Shown: piece after piece, positions 12,469 to 24,155 of the stretch
Position numbering within the stretch: the stretch's first letter is position 1
Layout of the letters: each line of letters opens with the position of its first letter
Origin: Citricoccus zhacaiensis
Lineage (GTDB): Bacteria > Actinomycetota > Actinomycetes > Actinomycetales > Micrococcaceae
NCBI RefSeq assembly: GCF_014645315.1
Contig: NZ_BMLQ01000005.1
Coordinates: 124,001 to 188,000, forward strand
Length of the DNA: 64,000 nucleotides
Direction: 5' to 3'
Position numbers and translations under genes: made by a program
Notes under the pieces: model-generated
The model's database searches: none
What the model saw: only the letters and a program-made list of their open reading frames with translations
What the model was told of the DNA's origin: nothing

Positions 12469-13656
12469 ATGACCAACGAGACCCCCCGCTACGAGGGCTT
12501 CAACACCCGCGCCATCCACGCCGGCCAGGCCCACGAGACGGTCTATGGCGCCGTGGTGCCACCCGTGCACCTCTCCACCACCTATGCCCCCGAGGCCGTG
12601 GGGCAGCTGCGCCACGGCTATGACTACGGCCGCGGCACCAACCCCACCCGTGATTCCCTCCAGGAGCAGCTGGCCGCCCTGGAAGGCGGCGTGGATGGCA
12701 GGGCCCGCGCCTTCACCTTCGGCTCCGGCCTGGCCGCCGAGAATGCCCTGATCCACGCCGTGGCCGGCCCTGGCGCCCACATCGTCATGGGCAACGACGT
12801 CTACGGCGGCACCTACCGCCTGATCAACAAGATCCTGGGCCCCTGGGGCGTCACCCACACCGTGGTGGACATGGCAGACGCCTCCGCTGTGGAACAGGCA
12901 CTGGCGGCCACCGACGCCTCCGCTACCCGGATCCTGTGGCTGGAGACGCCCTCCAACCCGATGATGAAGGTCTCGGACATCGCCGCACTGGCGGAGGCGG
13001 CGCACGCGGCCGGGGCGCTGCTGGTGGTGGACAACACCTTCGCGACGCCGTACCTGCAGCTGCCGCTGGAACTGGGCGCCGACGTCGTGGTCCATTCCAC
13101 GACCAAGTACATCGGCGGGCACTCCGATGTGATCGGCGGCGCCGTGGTGGTCAACGACCCGGAGCTCGCCGAGAAGGTGAAGTTCCAGCAGTTCGCTGCC
13201 GGTGCGGTCAACGGGCCGCTGGACGCCTATCTGACCACCCGGGGGCTCAAGACGCTGGGGGTGCGCATGGACCGCCACAATGCGAACGCCGCCACGATCG
13301 CCCAGCACCTGCAGGGCGTCTCCGGCGTGGAGCGGGTGCTGTACCCGGGCCTGCCCGACCACCCCGGCCATGAGCTGGCGTCCCGCCAGATGCGCGGCTA
13401 CGGCGGCATGGTTTCGGTGCAGTTCACCGGCGGGGCGGCGGCCGCCAAGCAGGTCGCCGAGACCACCCGGCTGTTCCAGCTGGCGGAGTCCCTGGGCGGG
13501 ATCGAGTCGCTGATGAACTACCCGGCCGAGATGACCCACGCCTCCGTGGCCGGCACCGAGCTCGCGGTGCCGGACAACCTGGTGCGCCTGTCCGTGGGCA
13601 TCGAGGACGTGGCCGATCTGATCGACGACCTGGACCGCGCCATCGCCTCGCTCTAG
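12469..13656 (+). CDS. metB: Cystathionine gamma-synthase / gamma-lyase (Cys/Met PLP enzyme)
   Basis: A 395-residue PLP enzyme of the Cys/Met metabolism family. It starts GFNTRAIHAGQ, and K213 in STTKYIGGHSD is the PLP lysine. SGLAAENAL and LETPSNP are family motifs. GAAAGGAC precedes the ATG. Downstream of cbs, it would either make cystathionine from O-succinylhomoserine or cleave it to cysteine. Sequence alone does not separate the two, and the pairing with cbs favours a lyase role. The stop overlaps that of the convergent TSUP gene through a shared CTAG. Confidence 0.9.
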   Translation: MTNETPRYEGFNTRAIHAGQAHETVYGAVVPPVHLSTTYAPEAVGQLRHGYDYGRGTNPTRDSLQEQLAALEGGVDGRARAFTFGSGLAAENALIHAVAGPGAHIVMGNDVYGGTYRLINKILGPWGVTHTVVDMADASAVEQALAATDASATRILWLETPSNPMMKVSDIAALAEAAHAAGALLVVDNTFATPYLQLPLELGADVVVHSTTKYIGGHSDVIGGAVVVNDPELAEKVKFQQFAAGAVNGPLDAYLTTRGLKTLGVRMDRHNANAATIAQHLQGVSGVERVLYPGLPDHPGHELASRQMRGYGGMVSVQFTGGAAAAKQVAETTRLFQLAESLGGIESLMNYPAEMTHASVAGTELAVPDNLVRLSVGIEDVADLIDDLDRAIASL

Positions 13657-14435
13657 GCAGCGTCCAGCAGGAGCCGGAGGGCGACGACGTAGCCGAAGAG
13701 CACCACGAGGACCCGGAAGACCGGTCCGGGCAGTCGCCGCCCGATGAGGGCGCCGAGCCAGCCGCCGACCACGGAGCCGATCGCCAGGAGTCCGACGGCG
13801 GCCCAGTCGACGGGAGCGATCCAGACGAAGATCAGGGCGGCCACCACGTTGGCCGCCAGCACGGCCACGTTCTTCAGGGCGTTGATGGTCTGGAGCCGTT
13901 GCTCCAGTCCCAGGGCGAGAAAGGCCACGAGCATGACTCCCTGGCCTGCCCCGAAGTAGCCGCCGTAGACGCCGATGGCCGCTGACACCCAGGCCAGGGG
14001 CGCCGGTAGGCGGGTGCTGGTGCCGCGGGGCGCGTCCCCACGGCGCCTCGCCCGCCGCCGCAGCACCCCGGAGATGGCGGGCTGGGCGCCGACCAGGGTG
14101 GCGGCCAGCAGGATCAGCCAAGGTGCCAGCCGCGAGAAGGCCTCAGAGGGCAGCGAGAGGAGCAGCGCGGCCCCGGCCGCCGCGCCCACGGCGGTGGTCG
14201 CGGCGACGCCGATGACCAGGCCGCGCTGGCCCACGAGCTCGTGGCGATACCCCCAGGTGCCGGTGATGTTCCCCGGCACGAGCCCGATGGTGTTGGAGAC
14301 GTTCGCCACCACGGGCGGCAGGCCGACGGCCAGCAGGACGGGGAAGGTCACCAGGGAGCCGGCCCCGATGGCGGTGACGACCAGGCCACCTCCGAGGCCG
14401 GCCGCGAGGATCGCGAGTGCCGTCAGCACGTCCAC
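13653..14435 (-). CDS. TSUP (TauE/SafE) family membrane exporter
   Basis: A 260-residue membrane protein with about 8 hydrophobic segments. It contains the TSUP hallmarks GGGLVVTAIGAGSLVTFP and NVSNTIGLVPGNITG near the N-terminus, and a related repeat (GYFGAGQGV, NALKNV) in the second half. Family members move sulfite, sulfonates or small carboxylates. It uses a GTG start preceded by a strong GGAGGGAGG. It lies 21 bases after the AccDA gene on the same strand, making it the last gene of the matC operon and a likely exporter of an anionic product. Confidence 0.88.
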   Translation of the reverse strand: MDVLTALAILAAGLGGGLVVTAIGAGSLVTFPVLLAVGLPPVVANVSNTIGLVPGNITGTWGYRHELVGQRGLVIGVAATTAVGAAAGAALLLSLPSEAFSRLAPWLILLAATLVGAQPAISGVLRRRARRRGDAPRGTSTRLPAPLAWVSAAIGVYGGYFGAGQGVMLVAFLALGLEQRLQTINALKNVAVLAANVVAALIFVWIAPVDWAAVGLLAIGSVVGGWLGALIGRRLPGPVFRVLVVLFGYVVALRLLLDAA

Positions 14436-14456
14436 CGGCGCCTCCCTCCGGCCGCG

Positions 14457-15989
14457 TCAGCAGCCCAGTTGATGGAATCTGGCGGCCCTCAAACCGAGCC
14501 GGTCGGCGTCGGGAAGGCAGACCGCCCGTGACAGCTCGTACTCTATGGCCGAGGCCATGGCCGTGCAGAAACCGTGCGGGTCGTGCTCGGCGGGCGGTTC
14601 CTCCGGCACCACGTGGTCCACGAGTCCGATCCGGTGCAGTGCGGCGACGTTGACGTCCTGTGCCTCCGCCAGCTCGGGGGCGTGCAGGGTATCCCGGTGC
14701 ACGATCGCGCTGGCTCCCTCCGGGGGCAGGGGCGAGAGCCACGCATGCTCGGCGGCGATGACCCGGTCGGCGGGCACCAGGGCCAAGGCCCCACCGCCCG
14801 CGCCCTGTCCCCAGAGGACGGACACGCTGGGCACCGGGGTCCCGATCAGGTCGGCGAGGGTCCGGGCGATCTCACCGGCCAGCCCGCCCTCCTCGGCCTC
14901 GCGGGACAGCTCCGCTCCGGCCGTGTCGATGACGGTGAGCAGGGGCAGTCGCAGCTCCTGGGCCACCTGGACGCCCCGCCGGGCCTGCCGGAGGGAGGCC
15001 GGGCCCATCTCCCGCTCCCCGGGGCCAGGCCGCTGGTGCCCGACGACGACGCACGGCTGGGTGCCGAAGCGGGCCAACGCGAGGGTCAGCCCTGGATCGG
15101 CCTCGCCCTGCCCCGTGCCGTGCAGGACCACGGCGTCATCGGCGCCCTCCTCCAGCAGGCGCTGCAGGTCAGGCCGTCCGCGGTGGCGGGACCGCTCGAT
15201 GGAGTGCCAGGTGGAGGTGGTCCCGGGGCCGGCAGCGGCGCTGGCCGGGGCCGGCGTCGGGCAGGCCGGACCGGACCGGCTGGACTGGTTGGACTGGGGC
15301 GCCGGGGCGACGATGCGCAGCACCCGGTCGAACAGGTCCGGAAGGTCCTCGGGGGCGGCGACGCCGTCGATGATCCCCCGGCGGTGGAGGTTCTCCGCCG
15401 TCTGCACCCCGCTGGGGAACGGCTCTGAGTTGAGGGCCTCGAAGACCCGGGGCCCGAGGAAGCCGAGCAGGGCGCCGGGCTCGGCGAGAGTCACGTGGCC
15501 CAGTGACCCCCAGGAGGCCATCACGCCGCCGGTGGTGGGGTGCCGGAGGTAGACCAGGTACGGCAGGCCCCGGTCCTTGTGCCGGTGGATGGCCTGGGTG
15601 ATGTCCACCATGGACAGGAATGCGGGGGTGCCCTCCTGCATCCTGGTGCCGCCGGAGGCCGGGCAGGCGAGCAGGGGCAGGCCCTCCTCGGTGGCGCGTC
15701 GGACGGCGTCAGTGATGCGGCGCGATGCGGCACGGCCGATGGAGCCCGCCAGGAAGCCGAATTCGGAGACGATCACGGCCACCGGTCGGCCGCGGATCAG
15801 CCCCCGGCCGGTCGTGACGGACTCGTCGGCTCCGGTGGCGCGGCGAGCCTTCTCCAGCTCGGCGGCGTACCGGGGGCTGGTGGCAGGTTGCTCGGCCGGG
15901 CGATCCCATGGCGTGAAGGTCCCCTCGTCCAGCACCAGGGCCAGGAGCTGTGCCGCGGACCGCCGCAGCCTCACCTCGGTGCCGGTCAT
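14457..15989 (-). CDS. Fused AccD-AccA carboxyltransferase-like protein (possible malonyl-CoA decarboxylase)
   Basis: A 510-residue fusion of two crotonase-fold carboxyltransferase halves. The beta-like half (residues 1-235) has GRGLIRGRPVAVIVSEFGF and PASGGTRMQEGTPAF. The alpha-like half (residues 265-480) has VIDTAGAELSREAEEGG and WGQGAGGGALALV. The zinc-ribbon cysteines of bacterial AccD are absent. It is annotated in other actinobacteria as acetyl-CoA carboxylase carboxyltransferase (AccD3 type). No biotin carboxylase or carrier gene is nearby, and the neighbours are MatC and a CoA transferase, so a decarboxylase role like MdcD/MdcE is inferred. ATG at 15989 overlaps the upstream stop (ATGA). 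Confidence 0.82.
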   Translation of the reverse strand: MTGTEVRLRRSAAQLLALVLDEGTFTPWDRPAEQPATSPRYAAELEKARRATGADESVTTGRGLIRGRPVAVIVSEFGFLAGSIGRAASRRITDAVRRATEEGLPLLACPASGGTRMQEGTPAFLSMVDITQAIHRHKDRGLPYLVYLRHPTTGGVMASWGSLGHVTLAEPGALLGFLGPRVFEALNSEPFPSGVQTAENLHRRGIIDGVAAPEDLPDLFDRVLRIVAPAPQSNQSSRSGPACPTPAPASAAAGPGTTSTWHSIERSRHRGRPDLQRLLEEGADDAVVLHGTGQGEADPGLTLALARFGTQPCVVVGHQRPGPGEREMGPASLRQARRGVQVAQELRLPLLTVIDTAGAELSREAEEGGLAGEIARTLADLIGTPVPSVSVLWGQGAGGGALALVPADRVIAAEHAWLSPLPPEGASAIVHRDTLHAPELAEAQDVNVAALHRIGLVDHVVPEEPPAEHDPHGFCTAMASAIEYELSRAVCLPDADRLGLRAARFHQLGC

Positions 15990-17161
15990 GCCAGCCACGA
16001 CCGGATGGCCTCGGCGTCCCGGTCCAGCAGTGGCGGCGCGGTGTGGGTCCGCTTCGTGGTCTCCTGCCCCGAGGCCGCGTCGAAGAACCGCAGCGGGGGG
16101 CCGGGGAGGTCGATGCCGCCGAGGAGGGGATGGTCCACCGTGAGGCGCAGGCCCTGGGCCTCGACTTGGTCCCAGGCGTAGACCTCGTCCAGGGACCGCA
16201 CCTTCCCGGCCGGGATGCCGGCCGCCTCCAGCCGTTCCAGCAGTTCGGCGGGCGGGTGGGTGCTGAAGGCTTGTTCGATCACCTGGATGAGCCGGTCCCG
16301 GTGCTCCACCCGCAGCGCGTTCGTGGCGAAGTCCGGGTCCTCGGGATCGAGGCCGACGGTGGTGCAGAACGTCCTCCAGAGCCGCTCGTTGCCGACGCTG
16401 ATCTGGACGCTTCCGCCCTGGCAGTGGAAGAGGCCGTAGGGGGCGATCGAGGGATGGTGGTTGCCCTGGGCCTGCGGGGTCTGCCCGGCCACGGTCTGGC
16501 GGGTCCCCTGGAAGGCGTGGACGCCGACCACCGCGGCGAGCAGTGAGGTCCTCACCACCTGTCCCTTCCCGGTCCGCTCGCGTTCCAGGAGGGCCGCCAG
16601 CAGGCCATAGGCCCCGTACATTCCTGAGAGCAGGTCGGCGATCGGGACGCCCACGCGCTGCGGGTCGTCCGGCCCGGACCCGGTGAGGGACATCAGCCCG
16701 GCCTCGCCCTGCACGATCTGGTCATAACCGCTGCGGGTGGCCTCGGGGCCGTCATGGCCGAACCCGGTGATGGAGAGGATGACGAGCCGGGGGTTGATCT
16801 CGTGCAGGGCCTCCACCGGGAACCCGAGCCGGTCCAGCACACCGGTGCGGAAGTTCTCCAACAGGGCATCGGACCGCCGGACGAGCTCGACCAGGGTGGC
16901 CCGGCCGTCCTCGCTCTTGAGGTCCAGGGCGATGGACTCCTTGTTGCGGTTGCAGGAGAGATAGTAGGTGGCCTGGGGGTCGTCCTCCGGGCCCACGAAC
17001 GGCGGGCCCCAGGACCGGGTGTCGTCGCCGGTGCCGGGGGTTTCGACCTTGATCACCCGCGCGCCGAGGTCGCCGAGCATCATCCCGGCGTGGGGGCCGG
17101 CCAGGGCCCGGGTGAGGTCGAGGACGGTGTAGCCGCTGAGCGGTCCTGCGGTGGTGGTCAT
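15986..17161 (-). CDS. Family III CoA transferase (CaiB/BaiF)
   Basis: A 391-residue cytoplasmic enzyme that moves CoA between carboxylic acids by an aspartyl-anhydride mechanism. D176 in GVPIADLLSGMYG matches the catalytic aspartate of formyl-CoA transferase. LDLTRALAGPHAGMMLGDLGARVIK and NRNKESIALDLK are family motifs. It lies between matC and the AccDA-like gene with a 4-base overlap downstream and about 30 bases upstream. The context suggests it activates the dicarboxylate imported by MatC, for example malonate to malonyl-CoA. The true substrate is unproven. Confidence 0.9.
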   Translation of the reverse strand: MTTTAGPLSGYTVLDLTRALAGPHAGMMLGDLGARVIKVETPGTGDDTRSWGPPFVGPEDDPQATYYLSCNRNKESIALDLKSEDGRATLVELVRRSDALLENFRTGVLDRLGFPVEALHEINPRLVILSITGFGHDGPEATRSGYDQIVQGEAGLMSLTGSGPDDPQRVGVPIADLLSGMYGAYGLLAALLERERTGKGQVVRTSLLAAVVGVHAFQGTRQTVAGQTPQAQGNHHPSIAPYGLFHCQGGSVQISVGNERLWRTFCTTVGLDPEDPDFATNALRVEHRDRLIQVIEQAFSTHPPAELLERLEAAGIPAGKVRSLDEVYAWDQVEAQGLRLTVDHPLLGGIDLPGPPLRFFDAASGQETTKRTHTAPPLLDRDAEAIRSWLA

Positions 17162-17190
17162 AGGATTCCTCTCTCCGGGGCGGTGCCGGC

Positions 17191-18561
17191 TCACATCCAT
17201 CCGGGGGCCACCATGGTCAGCCAGGCGAGCGGCGGGGCGACGACCACCACGATCGCCCCGTAGGTGAGGATCTGCTTGTAGAAGCGGTCGGAGTCCGTCC
17301 CCTCCGGCGCATTCGCGAGCACCAGGGCGCCGTTCGTGGAGAACGGGGACACATCCACCACCGTGGAGGCGACCGCCAGGGCGCAGACGACGCCGATGGC
17401 ACTGACGGACCCGGAATCGAGGAAGGGGACGGCCAGGGGGATCAGGGCGGCGAGGATGGCGGTGGAGGAGGCGAAGGCGGAGACCACGGCACCGATGTAG
17501 CAGATCATCAGGGCGGCGAGCAGCGGCATGCCCATCTGGGCGACGGCGTCGGAGACGTACGTGATGGTCCCGGCCTCCTGGAGCGTGCCGACGAAGGTCA
17601 GCATGCCGCAGATCAGCAGCACCGTCGGCCAGCTGATCTTGTTGACCGCTCCCTTCTGGGCCTTCGGCGAGAGCAGCGCGAGGACCACCGCGATGGTGAT
17701 GGACACGAAGCCGATGTCCACCTGGAAGCCGAGAGCCACCACGGCCAGGGCCACGAGGCCGAGCATGGTGGCGACCTGGGGGAACGTGACCGTCTGCGAG
17801 GAGGATGAGGAGGAGGACGGGCCGTCGCCGGCCGGGTCTCGGGGGCCGTACGTCCCACTGCCGGAGCCCTTGAAGTCGACGCCGGCCGCGCGGGCACCCA
17901 CAGAGGCGTGGAGGCGGGCGTCCGAGACGGACTCGGCGAACTGTGAAACCCGCGTTCCCACGAGGGACCTGCCGCCGAGGACGAGGAACAGAACGACGGC
18001 GATGACTGCGTTGAAGATCAGGGAGCTGAGGAACAGGGCCGTCGGGCTGAACGCGAAGCCCGCGTCGGCGATCAGGCCGTTGACGATCACGCCGTAGACG
18101 GCGATGGGGGAGAAGCCTCCGGCCTGGGCGCCGTGGACGATCAGCATGCCCATCATCAGGGGGTTGATCTTGTACTTGGCGGCGAAGTTGAGGCCGATGG
18201 GGGCCATGATGGCCACCGCGGCCGGGCCGAGCGCGCCCACGGCCGTGATGACCGCGGTGAGGGTGAACATGACCCACGGGATGAGAGCGACCCGGTTGTC
18301 CACGAGTTTCACGGCCCGTCTGACCAGCAGGTCGATCGTGCCGTTGTTCTGGGCGATGGCGAAGAGATAGGTGACGCCGACGAGGGTGAGGAAGAGGCCT
18401 CCGGGGAAGTTGGCCATGATGTCGTCCGCCTCCATCCCCAGGAAGAGAGCCCCGAGGACGAAGGCGCCTACGAACGCCAACGCGCCCATGTTGATGGGCA
18501 GCACGGTGGCGAGGATGAACATGGCGGCCAGGATGATGATCGCGATGATGGGTTCTGACAT
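17191..18561 (-). CDS. matC: Dicarboxylate carrier, MatC family (SLC13/ion transporter superfamily)
   Basis: A 456-residue membrane protein with about 11-12 hydrophobic segments in two halves. They are separated by a hydrophilic linker (residues about 225-260) containing a run of seven serines. The N-terminal half matches the MatC_N domain of Rhizobium malonate/dicarboxylate carriers (IIAIIILAAMFILATVLPIN, PNGLFL-type NFPGGLFLTLVGVTYLFAIA). ATG at 18561 follows GGAAGG; an upstream in-frame start at 18597 has no such site. It heads an operon with a CoA transferase and is divergent from a FadR-type regulator. Malonate is the likeliest substrate by family. Confidence 0.85.
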   Translation of the reverse strand: MSEPIIAIIILAAMFILATVLPINMGALAFVGAFVLGALFLGMEADDIMANFPGGLFLTLVGVTYLFAIAQNNGTIDLLVRRAVKLVDNRVALIPWVMFTLTAVITAVGALGPAAVAIMAPIGLNFAAKYKINPLMMGMLIVHGAQAGGFSPIAVYGVIVNGLIADAGFAFSPTALFLSSLIFNAVIAVVLFLVLGGRSLVGTRVSQFAESVSDARLHASVGARAAGVDFKGSGSGTYGPRDPAGDGPSSSSSSSQTVTFPQVATMLGLVALAVVALGFQVDIGFVSITIAVVLALLSPKAQKGAVNKISWPTVLLICGMLTFVGTLQEAGTITYVSDAVAQMGMPLLAALMICYIGAVVSAFASSTAILAALIPLAVPFLDSGSVSAIGVVCALAVASTVVDVSPFSTNGALVLANAPEGTDSDRFYKQILTYGAIVVVVAPPLAWLTMVAPGWM

Positions 18562-18594
18562 AGGGATGCCTTCCAGAGGGCGTGTGAGGTGGAT

Positions 18595-18645
18595 CACTCT
18601 GCTAGTGGCCTAGCCTCCTAGACTCATGAGCCGGTTGTCAATATG
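18595..18645. promoter_or_regulatory. Divergent operator/promoter region of the matC operon and its regulator
   Basis: The inverted repeat GCTAG-TGGC-CTAGC is at 18601-18614 and the 8-bp palindrome CTCATGAG at 18623-18630. A minus-strand TTGACA (18636-18641) lies upstream of both, so a regulator bound at the repeats would sit over or just after the matC promoter. Assignment to the adjacent FadR-type regulator is inference. Confidence 0.4.
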
Positions 18646-18684
18646 CTGTGACGAACTCACGGACGAGCGCGCGGGAGGTCGCAG

Positions 18685-19398
18685 ATGACGGAACAGGACA
18701 GAGGCCACGGGCCGCGCCGTGTCACGCGTGCCCGGCTGTACGAGCAGCTGATGGAGCGGATCCTTGAGTTCATCGACGAGGAGGGTTTGGCGCCCGGCGA
18801 TCGGCTCCCCTCGGAACGCGACCTGGCCGAACAGTTCGGCGTCTCCCGGGCGACCCTGGCTCAGGCCCTGGTGGCGCTGGAGGTGCTCGGCGTCATCGAT
18901 GTCCGCCATGGCACCGGCGCAGTGCTGGTCTACCGCCCCAATGCGACGACGCTGCTGCGGCAGTTGAATGACCATCGAAGCCTGCTGCCGGAGATCGTGG
19001 AGGCCAGGAGCACTGTCGAGGTCAAGCTCGCGGCCCTGGCGGCCGAGCGACGGACGGAGCAGGACCTGGCGGCAATTGACGCGGCCATCGAGGTGATGGC
19101 CGGCGAGATCGAGCAGGGTGGCCGGGGAGTGGGTGGCGACGAGCGGTTCCACGGGGCCATCACCCAGGCTGCGCATTCCGGGGTCTTGGCGCAGATGATG
19201 GACTTCTTGAGTGAGAGGATCCGGGAGACCCGCATTGAGTCCCTGGGGCAGCCTGGGCGTCCAGAAGTCTCCCTCGAGGCGCACCGGGCTATTGCGGAGG
19301 GCATTCGCCGGGGCGATCCGGACGAGGCGGCCCAGGCGATGCAGCGGCATATCGACGTGGTCTCCGATGTCCCGTTGCTCCGTGACGCCGCGGGCTGA
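18685..19398 (+). CDS. GntR/FadR-family transcriptional regulator (FCD domain), MatR-like
   Basis: A 237-residue DNA-binding regulator. The winged helix-turn-helix is at about residues 15-82 (LAPGDRLPSERDLAEQFGVSR, then HGTGAVL). A helical FCD ligand domain follows (residues 95-225: ARSTVEVKLAALAAERR, DERFHGAI, EAHRAIAEGIRRGDPDEA). GGGAGG lies 8 bases before the ATG. It is divergent from matC. In Rhizobium the mat genes are controlled by MatR of the same family, so it probably senses the operon's substrate. The ligand is not shown. Confidence 0.88.
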   Translation: MTEQDRGHGPRRVTRARLYEQLMERILEFIDEEGLAPGDRLPSERDLAEQFGVSRATLAQALVALEVLGVIDVRHGTGAVLVYRPNATTLLRQLNDHRSLLPEIVEARSTVEVKLAALAAERRTEQDLAAIDAAIEVMAGEIEQGGRGVGGDERFHGAITQAAHSGVLAQMMDFLSERIRETRIESLGQPGRPEVSLEAHRAIAEGIRRGDPDEAAQAMQRHIDVVSDVPLLRDAAG

Positions 19399-22745: not shown

Positions 22746-24155
22746 ATGGCCATCACCCGCACAGCAGCCAGCACGGACCCCACCACTGACACGGCCGAGG
22801 CGCCGCCCACGGACCGGCTCGTGCTGGGCCCGGGCCGCTGGATCAGCAACTGGCAGCCGGAACACCCGGAGTTCTGGAACGGCCCCGGACGGCCGGCCGC
22901 CCGGCGCAACCTCCACTGGTCCGTGTTCTGCGAGTTCCTCGGGTTCGCCGTCTGGCAGCTCTGGTCCGTCACGGTCGTCTTCCTGCCCGCCGCCGGCTTC
23001 GACCTCAGTACCTCACAGCAGTTCTGGCTCGTCTCCCTGCCGCCGCTCGTCGGGGCGGTGCTGCGGGTGCCCTACAGCTTCACCGTGGCCCTGTTCGGCG
23101 GCCGCAACTGGACCGTCATCTCCGCGCTGCTGCTCTTGATCCCGACGACGGCCCTCGCCCTCGCGCTGTCCACCCCCGAGACCCCGGTGTGGGTGCTCTA
23201 CGTCGTGGCCGCCCTCGCCGGCTTCGGCGGCGGCAACTTCGCCAGCTCCATGGCCAACATCACCTTCTTCTTCCCGGCCCGGGAGAAGGGGGCCGCCCTC
23301 GGGCTCAATGCGGCCGGCGGCAACATTGGCGTGGCGGTGGCCCAGTTCCTCGTTCCCCTCGCCGTCACCCTGCTGGCCTTCGGGACCTTCAGTCCGAACC
23401 TGCCCATGGCCGGACTGATCTGGATCCCGTTCATCCTGCTCGCCGCCTGGGGCGCGCACCGCTACATGCACAACCTGTCCCATGCTCGCAACGACCTCAA
23501 GGGCTCCCTGTCCACCCTGCGTGAGCCCCACCTGTGGCTGATCGCCGTGATCTACATCGGGACCTTCGGATCGTTCATGGGCTTCGGCTCTGTGTTCCCC
23601 ACCCTCATCTCGCTCATGTTCCCGGCGTTCACGAGCCTGGACCTCTGGGGCGCCGCCATCTCGATGGCCTTCCTGGGGCCGCTCGTCGGCTCCCTGGCCC
23701 GGCCTCTCGGCGGCAGGCTGGCCGACCGTCGCGGCGGGGCCCGCGTCACCCTAGGCTGCTTCATCGCGATGTCAGCCGTGACCGCCGCTGTGGTGCTCAC
23801 CCTGCCGTGGCAGAACTTCTGGCTCTACCTGGGCCTGTTCCTGGCGTTGTTCACCCTCACCGGCATCGCCAACGGCTCCAGTTACCGGATGATCCCGCTG
23901 GTCTTCCGCCTGACCGTCCCCACCGGGGACCCGGTCGGCCATGAACGCAAAGCCTCCGCCGCCCTGGGCCTGATCGGGGCCGTCGGGGGCTTCGGCGGCT
24001 TCCTGATCCCGCAGGTGCTCAGGGCCTCGCACAGCGCGAACGGGTCCTTCGACGCGGCCTTCTGGGTCCTCGCCGCCCTGTACCTGGGACTGGCCGTGTT
24101 CACCTACCTCGTCTACCGCCGCCCCGGCACGGCACTGGCCCGCGCCAATGTCTGA
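22746..24155 (+). CDS. narK: Nitrate/nitrite transporter, NarK/NasA type (MFS)
   Basis: A 469-residue 12-helix MFS protein that imports nitrate (or exchanges nitrate for nitrite). Signature segments are FGGGNFASSMANITFFFPAREKGAALGLNAAGGN and the matching C-terminal motif GIANGSSYRMIPLVF, with conserved glycines of the nitrate signature. The hydrophilic N-terminus ends in WISNWQPEHPEFWNG, typical of actinobacterial NarK. Its stop is overlapped by the nitrate reductase start, so transport and reduction are co-expressed. Confidence 0.92.
   Translation: MAITRTAASTDPTTDTAEAPPTDRLVLGPGRWISNWQPEHPEFWNGPGRPAARRNLHWSVFCEFLGFAVWQLWSVTVVFLPAAGFDLSTSQQFWLVSLPPLVGAVLRVPYSFTVALFGGRNWTVISALLLLIPTTALALALSTPETPVWVLYVVAALAGFGGGNFASSMANITFFFPAREKGAALGLNAAGGNIGVAVAQFLVPLAVTLLAFGTFSPNLPMAGLIWIPFILLAAWGAHRYMHNLSHARNDLKGSLSTLREPHLWLIAVIYIGTFGSFMGFGSVFPTLISLMFPAFTSLDLWGAAISMAFLGPLVGSLARPLGGRLADRRGGARVTLGCFIAMSAVTAAVVLTLPWQNFWLYLGLFLALFTLTGIANGSSYRMIPLVFRLTVPTGDPVGHERKASAALGLIGAVGGFGGFLIPQVLRASHSANGSFDAAFWVLAALYLGLAVFTYLVYRRPGTALARANV

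What the first reader, a model, noticed from the sequence alone, without database searches (positions are those of the whole stretch)
13653..19398. Probable malonate-type catabolic operon built from MatC, a family III CoA transferase, a fused AccDA protein and a TSUP exporter
Seen: matC, CaiB-type transferase, fused carboxyltransferase and TSUP gene on one strand with gaps of -4 to about 30 bases, divergent from a FadR-type regulator. Known: Rhizobium matC imports malonate and is controlled by a GntR/FadR regulator (MatR). In malonate decarboxylase, MdcD and MdcE, relatives of the two carboxyltransferase halves, decarboxylate malonyl thioesters without biotin. No matA or matB, and no biotin carboxylase or carrier, occurs here. 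Inference: malonate enters by MatC, becomes malonyl-CoA by CoA transfer, and the fused AccDA works as a biotin-free malonyl-CoA decarboxylase. This would be a route distinct from both mat and mdc systems. The TSUP protein might export acetate or a related anion; if the true substrate is a sulfonate, it could export sulfite.
Basis: partly seen in the sequence, partly recalled or inferred. Interest (0 to 1): 0.75.

Follow-up and report, generated by a model that had tools for sequence, protein, structure and literature searches.

The report
Malonate operon with biotin-free-looking decarboxylase
A small actinobacterial operon most likely imports malonate, attaches it to coenzyme A and decarboxylates it with an enzyme that looks like half of acetyl-CoA carboxylase but seems to work without biotin; this would give a job to a widespread protein family whose function is unknown.

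Summary
The genes are real and correctly placed: MatC, a family III CoA transferase (CaiB type), a fused AccD-AccA-like protein (AccDA) and a TSUP protein on one strand, divergent from a FadR-type regulator. The malonate reading gains independent support. (1) MatC is 52.6% identical to the protein beside matA-matB in a Rhizobium leguminosarum plasmid. (2) In other actinobacteria the CaiB-AccDA pair sits beside a barbiturase-like gene, whose pathway ends in malonate (recalled); locus L209 holds FadR|MatC-CaiB-AccDA-ArcC-barbiturase together. (3) The own genome has no mdcA or malonyl-CoA decarboxylase match. (4) 0 of 148 relatives lie near a biotin carboxylase; 0 of 110 keep the zinc ribbon or AccA loop that most biotin-linked AccDA keep. 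By gene order the family seems to include mycobacterial AccD3, reported to bind no partner tested (PMC4347857, passages). A promoter/operator-like pattern occurs once in the 3.69-Mb genome and in 24 of 30 FadR|MatC spacers. Best reading: malonate + acyl-CoA -> malonyl-CoA -> acetyl-CoA + CO2, an alternative to mat and mdc. No activity is shown, the biotin-free step is inference, TSUP's role is unknown.

The parts
17191..18561 (-). matC-like dicarboxylate (malonate) importer, 456 aa
   Evidence: PF07158 MatC_N 195 bits; 52.6% identical over 96% to the protein beside annotated malonyl-CoA decarboxylase and synthase genes in Rhizobium leguminosarum plasmid CP050081
15986..17161 (-). family III (CaiB-type) CoA transferase, 391 aa; catalytic Asp at residue 176 by homology (codon 16634-16636)
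   Evidence: PF02515 395 bits; best solved match 4ed9 (no named activity), then succinate-hydroxymethylglutarate CoA-transferase 9br6 and a formyl-CoA transferase; Asp in 69 of 69 aligned sequences
14457..15989 (-). fused AccD-AccA-like carboxyltransferase-fold protein (AccDA), proposed malonyl-CoA decarboxylase
   Evidence: PF01039 174 bits and PF03255 147 bits; AlphaFold2 model pLDDT 91.4; no zinc ribbon and no AccA NFGM/PEGYRKA loop
13653..14435 (-). TSUP (TauE/SafE) transporter, role unknown
   Evidence: PF01925 137 bits; homologues at 49-66% in six MatC loci, there beside the regulator
18685..19398 (+). FadR-type GntR regulator, divergent
   Evidence: PF07729 and PF00392; FadR homologue near 27 of 148 relatives, MatC near 28
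18606..18615 (-). GGCTAGGCCA, proposed operator of the FadR-type regulator
   Evidence: GGCTAGGCCA in 24 and CTAGGCCA in 25 of 30 distinct FadR|MatC spacers; in the window this is the one match with up to 1 mismatch, where chance expects 4.8
18636..18641 (-). TTGACA, proposed -35 box of the matC operon
   Evidence: TTGACA-N(15-26)-CTAGGCCA occurs once in the 3.69-Mb genome, here; reversed-pattern control 0; same pattern in 24 of 30 spacers

Best explanation
A malonate catabolic operon under a FadR-type regulator. MatC brings malonate in (inferred from homology and operon context). The CaiB-type enzyme moves CoA from an acyl-CoA donor such as acetyl-CoA or succinyl-CoA onto malonate (inferred from family and conserved Asp). 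AccDA, with one AccD-like and one AccA-like half in one chain, binds malonyl-CoA between the halves and decarboxylates it to acetyl-CoA without biotin, as MdcD-MdcE does in malonate decarboxylase (inferred). With acetyl-CoA as donor the net reaction is malonate -> acetate + CO2, the logic of Mdc with free CoA in place of the carrier protein. In other actinobacteria the same pair removes malonate made inside the cell by oxidative pyrimidine (barbiturate) degradation (inferred). TSUP may move acetate or another anion (open).
For: MatC homology to a mat-operon protein. CaiB beside AccDA in 52 of 148 distinct relatives; of 49 with CaiB directly upstream on the same strand, 30 overlap by exactly 4 bases. 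Barbiturase-like gene beside 14 of 148, 13 of them with CaiB; L209 joins FadR|MatC-CaiB-AccDA-ArcC-barbiturase. The one such protein compared with solved structures scores 683 bits to 'Barbiturase' 5hwe against 325 to the best cyanuric acid hydrolase. In 396 genomes of the order PF09663 (barbiturase/cyanuric acid hydrolase) and AccDA co-occur: AccDA in 18 of 30 with PF09663 against 65 of 366 without, Fisher p 1.2e-6, not corrected for phylogeny. MCD in 2 of 396; mdcA over cut-off in 0 of 396. No biotin carboxylase near any of 148. Zinc ribbon, NFGM, PEGYRKA: 0 of 110 in the family, 6, 5 and 6 of 7 in AccBC-linked relatives. MdcD-MdcE decarboxylates malonyl-CoA in vitro (PMC5534430, passages). 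[quoted passage not shown]
Against: No activity is measured. Both halves score far nearer to AccA/AccD than to MdcD/MdcE, and the solved chains nearest in fold are biotin-dependent carboxyltransferases. In the tree sample 70 of 110 family rows have no CaiB called within three genes, 96 of 148 have none within two. 6 of the 21 genomes searched hold no CaiB at 60% or more. 12 of 30 PF09663 genomes lack AccDA. NCBIfam names the barbiturase-like protein cyanuric acid amidohydrolase. In one unnamed genus the pair lies between histidine and tryptophan genes without a transporter. A paper suggests a mycolic acid role for the EchA6-AccD cluster (PMC5501465, passages).
Confidence: 0.62

Rival explanations
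1. AccDA is biotin-dependent after all: it borrows the housekeeping biotin carboxylase/carrier and runs as a carboxylase or as carboxylase in reverse.
For: Fold and sequence are nearest to ACC carboxyltransferases; both glycine-rich halves are kept; the own genome has four biotin carboxylases, and actinobacterial carriers can be shared (recalled).
Against: 0 of 148 lie near a biotin carboxylase. The four own biotin carboxylases have likely partners: one lies in a LamB/YcsF-CT operon, two lie within 9 kb of another CT, one is in a 1205-aa open frame with a biotin/lipoyl hit. Family-wide loss of zinc ribbon and AccA loop. AccD3 bound no partner used (PMC4347857, passages).
Confidence: 0.16
2. 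The substrate is another short diacid, such as methylmalonate, hydroxymalonate, oxalate or a five-carbon diacid.
For: The CoA transferase is nearest to succinate-glutarate-type and oxalate enzymes; MatC belongs to a broad dicarboxylate family.
Against: Two independent malonate links, the mat-operon MatC and barbiturase.
Confidence: 0.12
3. The pair feeds malonyl-CoA to biosynthesis or recycles stray malonate, a succinate dehydrogenase inhibitor, rather than serving growth on malonate.
For: One genus carries the pair without a transporter in a biosynthetic region; AccDA without CaiB nearby is common.
Against: The importer and the divergent regulator in Micrococcaceae point to an external substrate.
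Confidence: 0.1
4. A sulfonate pathway with TSUP exporting sulfite.
For: The TSUP family includes TauE/SafE.
Against: TSUP is near only 4 of 148 AccDA relatives, each with MatC, plus two CaiB-MatC loci without AccDA; no sulfonate gene was recognised among the neighbours annotated.
Confidence: 0.03

Closest known systems
Rhizobium mat operon (GntR regulator, MatA malonyl-CoA decarboxylase, MatB malonyl-CoA synthetase, MatC)
   Same: GntR-type regulator and MatC; malonate -> malonyl-CoA -> acetyl-CoA logic
   Different: ATP-using MatB is replaced by a CoA transferase, MatA by an unrelated carboxyltransferase-fold protein
Biotin-independent malonate decarboxylase (MdcACDE)
   Same: Transferase plus a decarboxylase of two crotonase-fold halves without biotin
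   Different: No acyl carrier protein, no MdcA; free CoA; family III instead of MdcA-type transferase; halves fused and nearer AccD/AccA
Acetyl-CoA carboxylase carboxyltransferase AccA/AccD, and fused AccDA next to a biotin carboxylase
   Same: Fold, both halves, 35-36% identity to four fused AccBC-linked proteins
   Different: No zinc ribbon, AccA loop lost, no biotin carboxylase gene nearby
Mycobacterial AccD3 (Rv0904c), function unknown
   Different: Not beside MatC or CaiB; membership rests on gene order, not on a direct sequence comparison

Membership tests
mat operon | MatC importer | tested here: met
   PF07158 195 bits; 52.6% identity to the mat-linked protein
mat operon | MatA malonyl-CoA decarboxylase (PF05292) | tested here: not met
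   no match in the own genome
mat operon | MatB malonyl-CoA synthetase | not tested
   none in the operon; no genome-wide search made
biotin-independent malonate decarboxylase (mdc) | MdcA transferase | tested here: not met
   TIGR01110: no match in own genome; of 396 genomes 19 have a weak match (18-28 bits against a cut-off of 789), 0 over cut-off
biotin-independent malonate decarboxylase (mdc) | MdcD/MdcE at equivalog level | tested here: not met
   TIGR03133 53.7 of 278 bits; TIGR03134 22.3 of 237 bits
acetyl-CoA carboxylase carboxyltransferase | AccD/AccA curated score | tested here: not met
   TIGR00515 163.6 of 317 bits, NF041504 155 of 300 bits
acetyl-CoA carboxylase carboxyltransferase | AccD zinc ribbon and AccA NFGM/PEGYRKA loop | tested here: not met
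   absent in all 110 rows of the family, window included; zinc ribbon 6, NFGM 5, PEGYRKA 6 of 7 AccBC-linked relatives
acetyl-CoA carboxylase carboxyltransferase | works with a biotin carrier | not testable with these tools
   indirect only: 0 of 148 near a biotin carboxylase
family III CoA transferase | family domain and catalytic Asp | tested here: met
   PF02515 395 bits; Asp in 69 of 69, aligned with an Asp of solved enzymes; that it is the catalytic one is recalled
AccD3 family | orthology to mycobacterial AccD3 | tested here: inconclusive
   gene order only

The most novel reading that the evidence does not exclude
AccDA and its relatives, including mycobacterial AccD3, are a new family of biotin-free malonyl-CoA decarboxylases. 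With a family III CoA transferase they form a third, carrier-free malonate route that serves both malonate uptake and oxidative pyrimidine catabolism across the class.
Probability: 0.48. Interest if true: 0.76.

Novelty: new variant of a known kind. Interest (0 to 1): 0.63.

Why it matters
It proposes a testable function for a protein found in 130 of 384 genomes of the class and annotated, in the three annotated plasmid records I opened, only as 'carboxyl transferase domain-containing protein'. It offers a missing end to oxidative pyrimidine degradation and shows how a carboxyltransferase could lose biotin. If right, mycobacterial AccD3, whose metabolic function 'awaits further study' (PMC5311964, passages), would consume malonyl-CoA rather than make it.

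Full report
OBSERVATION. The four minus-strand genes and the divergent regulator are present as described. Start sites: matC 18561, CoA transferase 17161, AccDA 15989. The transferase stop and the AccDA start overlap by four bases. The window lies in a 3.69-Mb, 23-contig genome, 99.98% complete; its nearest named relatives in the AccDA tree are Arthrobacter.

MALONATE LINK 1: MatC. In plasmids, the window MatC matches 119 records, 55 of them Rhizobium. I opened one, Rhizobium leguminosarum CP050081: the 52.6% identical protein (annotated hypothetical) follows a GntR regulator, malonyl-CoA decarboxylase and malonyl-CoA synthase. MatC of R. trifolii was used to import malonate into E. coli (PMC12303837, passages). 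In the window, CaiB and AccDA take the place of matA and matB.

MALONATE LINK 2: barbiturase. In many relatives the CaiB-AccDA pair is followed by a carbamate-kinase-like protein (ArcC) and a ring-opening amidohydrolase. I compared one of these (L136) with solved structures: 683 bits to 'Barbiturase' 5hwe, 325 to the best cyanuric acid hydrolase. The others are 72-98% identical to it. NCBIfam names the four that I scanned cyanuric acid amidohydrolase, above cut-off, which is against my reading. Barbiturase belongs to pyrimidine catabolism (PMC4051656, passages); that ureidomalonate is then cleaved to malonate is recalled. In 396 genomes of the order, PF09663 (both enzymes) occurs in 30 and AccDA of this family in 83 (88 less five with only 35-38% matches). 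Both occur in 18; odds ratio 6.9, p 1.2e-6 without correction for phylogeny. By the coordinates they lie within 3.3 kb of each other in 10 of the 18. L209 has FadR|MatC-CaiB-AccDA-ArcC-barbiturase in one stretch. CaiB keeps these partners even away from AccDA: one search lists 12 CaiB loci with no AccDA called nearby; two (L122, L183) do have an AccDA that my caller missed; of the other ten (nine from Nocardioides genomes, one from G342), five have barbiturase-ArcC and three MatC near, two neither.

COUNTS OVER ALL LOCI. One search took 179 loci (L037-L232 with genes called; number) and kept 148 distinct AccDA with at least 45% identity to the window's and over 440 aa, the window itself not counted. 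Near them: CaiB (within 2 genes) 52, MatC (3) 28, FadR (4) 27, barbiturase (5) 14, ArcC (4) 13, TSUP (5) 4, biotin carboxylase (5; at least 40% to that of L139) 0. In one search the only genes whose best match was that biotin carboxylase lie in L138-L144. The sample is biased: it holds many Nocardioides (the best 80 of 363) and loci that I picked for odd contexts. TSUP homologues are seen in six MatC loci besides the window, two of them without AccDA.

WHY PERHAPS NO BIOTIN. The only fused AccDA relatives seen next to a biotin carboxylase are seven at 33-37% identity (domain checked in L139); they form one clade. Of these seven, 6 have the zinc ribbon, 5 NFGM, 6 PEGYRKA. Of the 110 others, window included, none has any; in the rows shown their AccA loop is six or more residues shorter. 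The model is confident (pLDDT 91.4). Its best structural matches are ACC carboxyltransferases; MdcD lies lower. So sequence and fold alone do not settle the matter. MdcD-MdcE decarboxylates malonyl-CoA in vitro, 14-fold slower in kcat than human MCD (PMC5534430, passages), which makes the step plausible. The own genome's four biotin carboxylases have likely partners elsewhere: one lies in a LamB/YcsF-CT operon, two lie within 9 kb of another carboxyltransferase, and one is in a 1205-aa open frame that also has a biotin/lipoyl hit. Sharing is not excluded.

AccD3. Four genomes of one class-level family (f22, which I guess to be mycobacteria; L193-L195, L197) show AccDA divergent from a 243-244-aa gene, then a 368-372-aa, a 488-530-aa and a 796-800-aa gene. 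In L197 the first is an enoyl-CoA hydratase, the second a metallo-beta-lactamase-fold protein, the last a P-type ATPase. A paper states that Rv0905 (EchA6) and the accD gene Rv0904c are in one cluster (PMC5501465, passages); that the next Rv genes match in size is recalled. One of these genomes, G450, also has FadR|MatC-CaiB-AccDA (L196), in line with the report that M. smegmatis has a second accD3 homologue (PMC5311964, passages). [quoted passage not shown] This fits a biotin-free enzyme, but the link is by gene order and a negative interaction test is weak. PMC5501465 suggests instead a link of this cluster to mycolic acid synthesis; in M. smegmatis loss of accD3 left fatty and mycolic acid synthesis undisturbed (PMC5311964, passages).

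REGULATION. Of 30 distinct FadR|MatC spacers (window included), 25 hold CTAGGCCA and 24 TTGACA-N(15-26)-CTAGGCCA; 8 have the full inverted repeat TGGC-TAG-GCCA and 16, the window among them, AGGC-TAG-GCCA. The TTGACA pattern occurs once in the whole genome, at this promoter, with 0 for the reversed control, and in 0 of 100 shuffles of the window (spacing 15-24). The short word alone is no rarity: with one mismatch allowed, chance expects 4.8 in the window and 1 is found. It looks like a FadR-family operator over the promoter (inference).

WHAT SPEAKS AGAINST. AccDA without CaiB nearby is common: 70 of 110 family rows, 96 of 148. Of the 21 genomes searched, six (G033, G034, G107, G190, G201, G286) hold no CaiB at 60% or more. 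A Tsukamurella plasmid has AccDA with no CoA transferase annotated near it. Twelve of 30 PF09663 genomes have no AccDA. In genus g20 (which I guess to be Microbacterium) the pair sits between histidine and tryptophan genes in the five loci read (domains scanned in L120 only). Perhaps AccDA also serves alone as malonyl-CoA decarboxylase.

DISTRIBUTION. 88 of 396 genomes of the order (E up to 1e-60) and 130 of 384 of the class (E up to 1e-90). Malonyl-CoA decarboxylase PF05292 is in 2 of 396; mdcA is over cut-off in 0 of 396, with 19 weak matches far below it.

VERDICT. A new variant of malonate catabolism, well supported for malonate, moderately for CoA transfer, by indirect evidence only for biotin-free decarboxylation.

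Noticed in passing
L046 (WNZI01000003.1): A record titled Vibrio cholerae strain 35D carries the Arthrobacter-type FadR|MatC-CaiB-AccDA locus and groups inside Arthrobacter; the record is probably mislabelled or contaminated.
   Followed up: partly
L136, L205, L206, L222, L223, L176: Hydantoinase/oxoprolinase genes (HyuA and HyuB; in L176 HyuB), a carbamate-kinase-like gene and barbiturase recur with CaiB; this may be an ATP-linked oxidative pyrimidine pathway with its own ureidomalonate step.
   Followed up: partly
L119-L121, L123, L150: CaiB-AccDA lies inside a histidine-tryptophan biosynthesis region (hisG, hisA-type, trpE-type, trpC-type genes scanned in L120) without a transporter; in L150 (G086) AccDA matches in two pieces.
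   Followed up: partly
L138-L144: A fused AccDA with a biotin carboxylase and, in six of seven, a small gene that is ACP-like in L139: apparently a separate fatty acid or polyketide-type carboxylase cluster.
   Followed up: partly
L132, L133, L184: CaiB-AccDA beside an M20 amidohydrolase, with a DUF5058 protein in L132 and L133; perhaps it releases malonate from a malonyl-amide.
   Followed up: no
L137, L127, L131: CaiB-AccDA beside a carboxylesterase (L137) or a flavin monooxygenase with DUF3500 (L127, L131); other possible sources of malonate.
   Followed up: no
window 22746-24155: NarK-type nitrate/nitrite transporter gene downstream of the regulator, unrelated to this operon.
   Followed up: no
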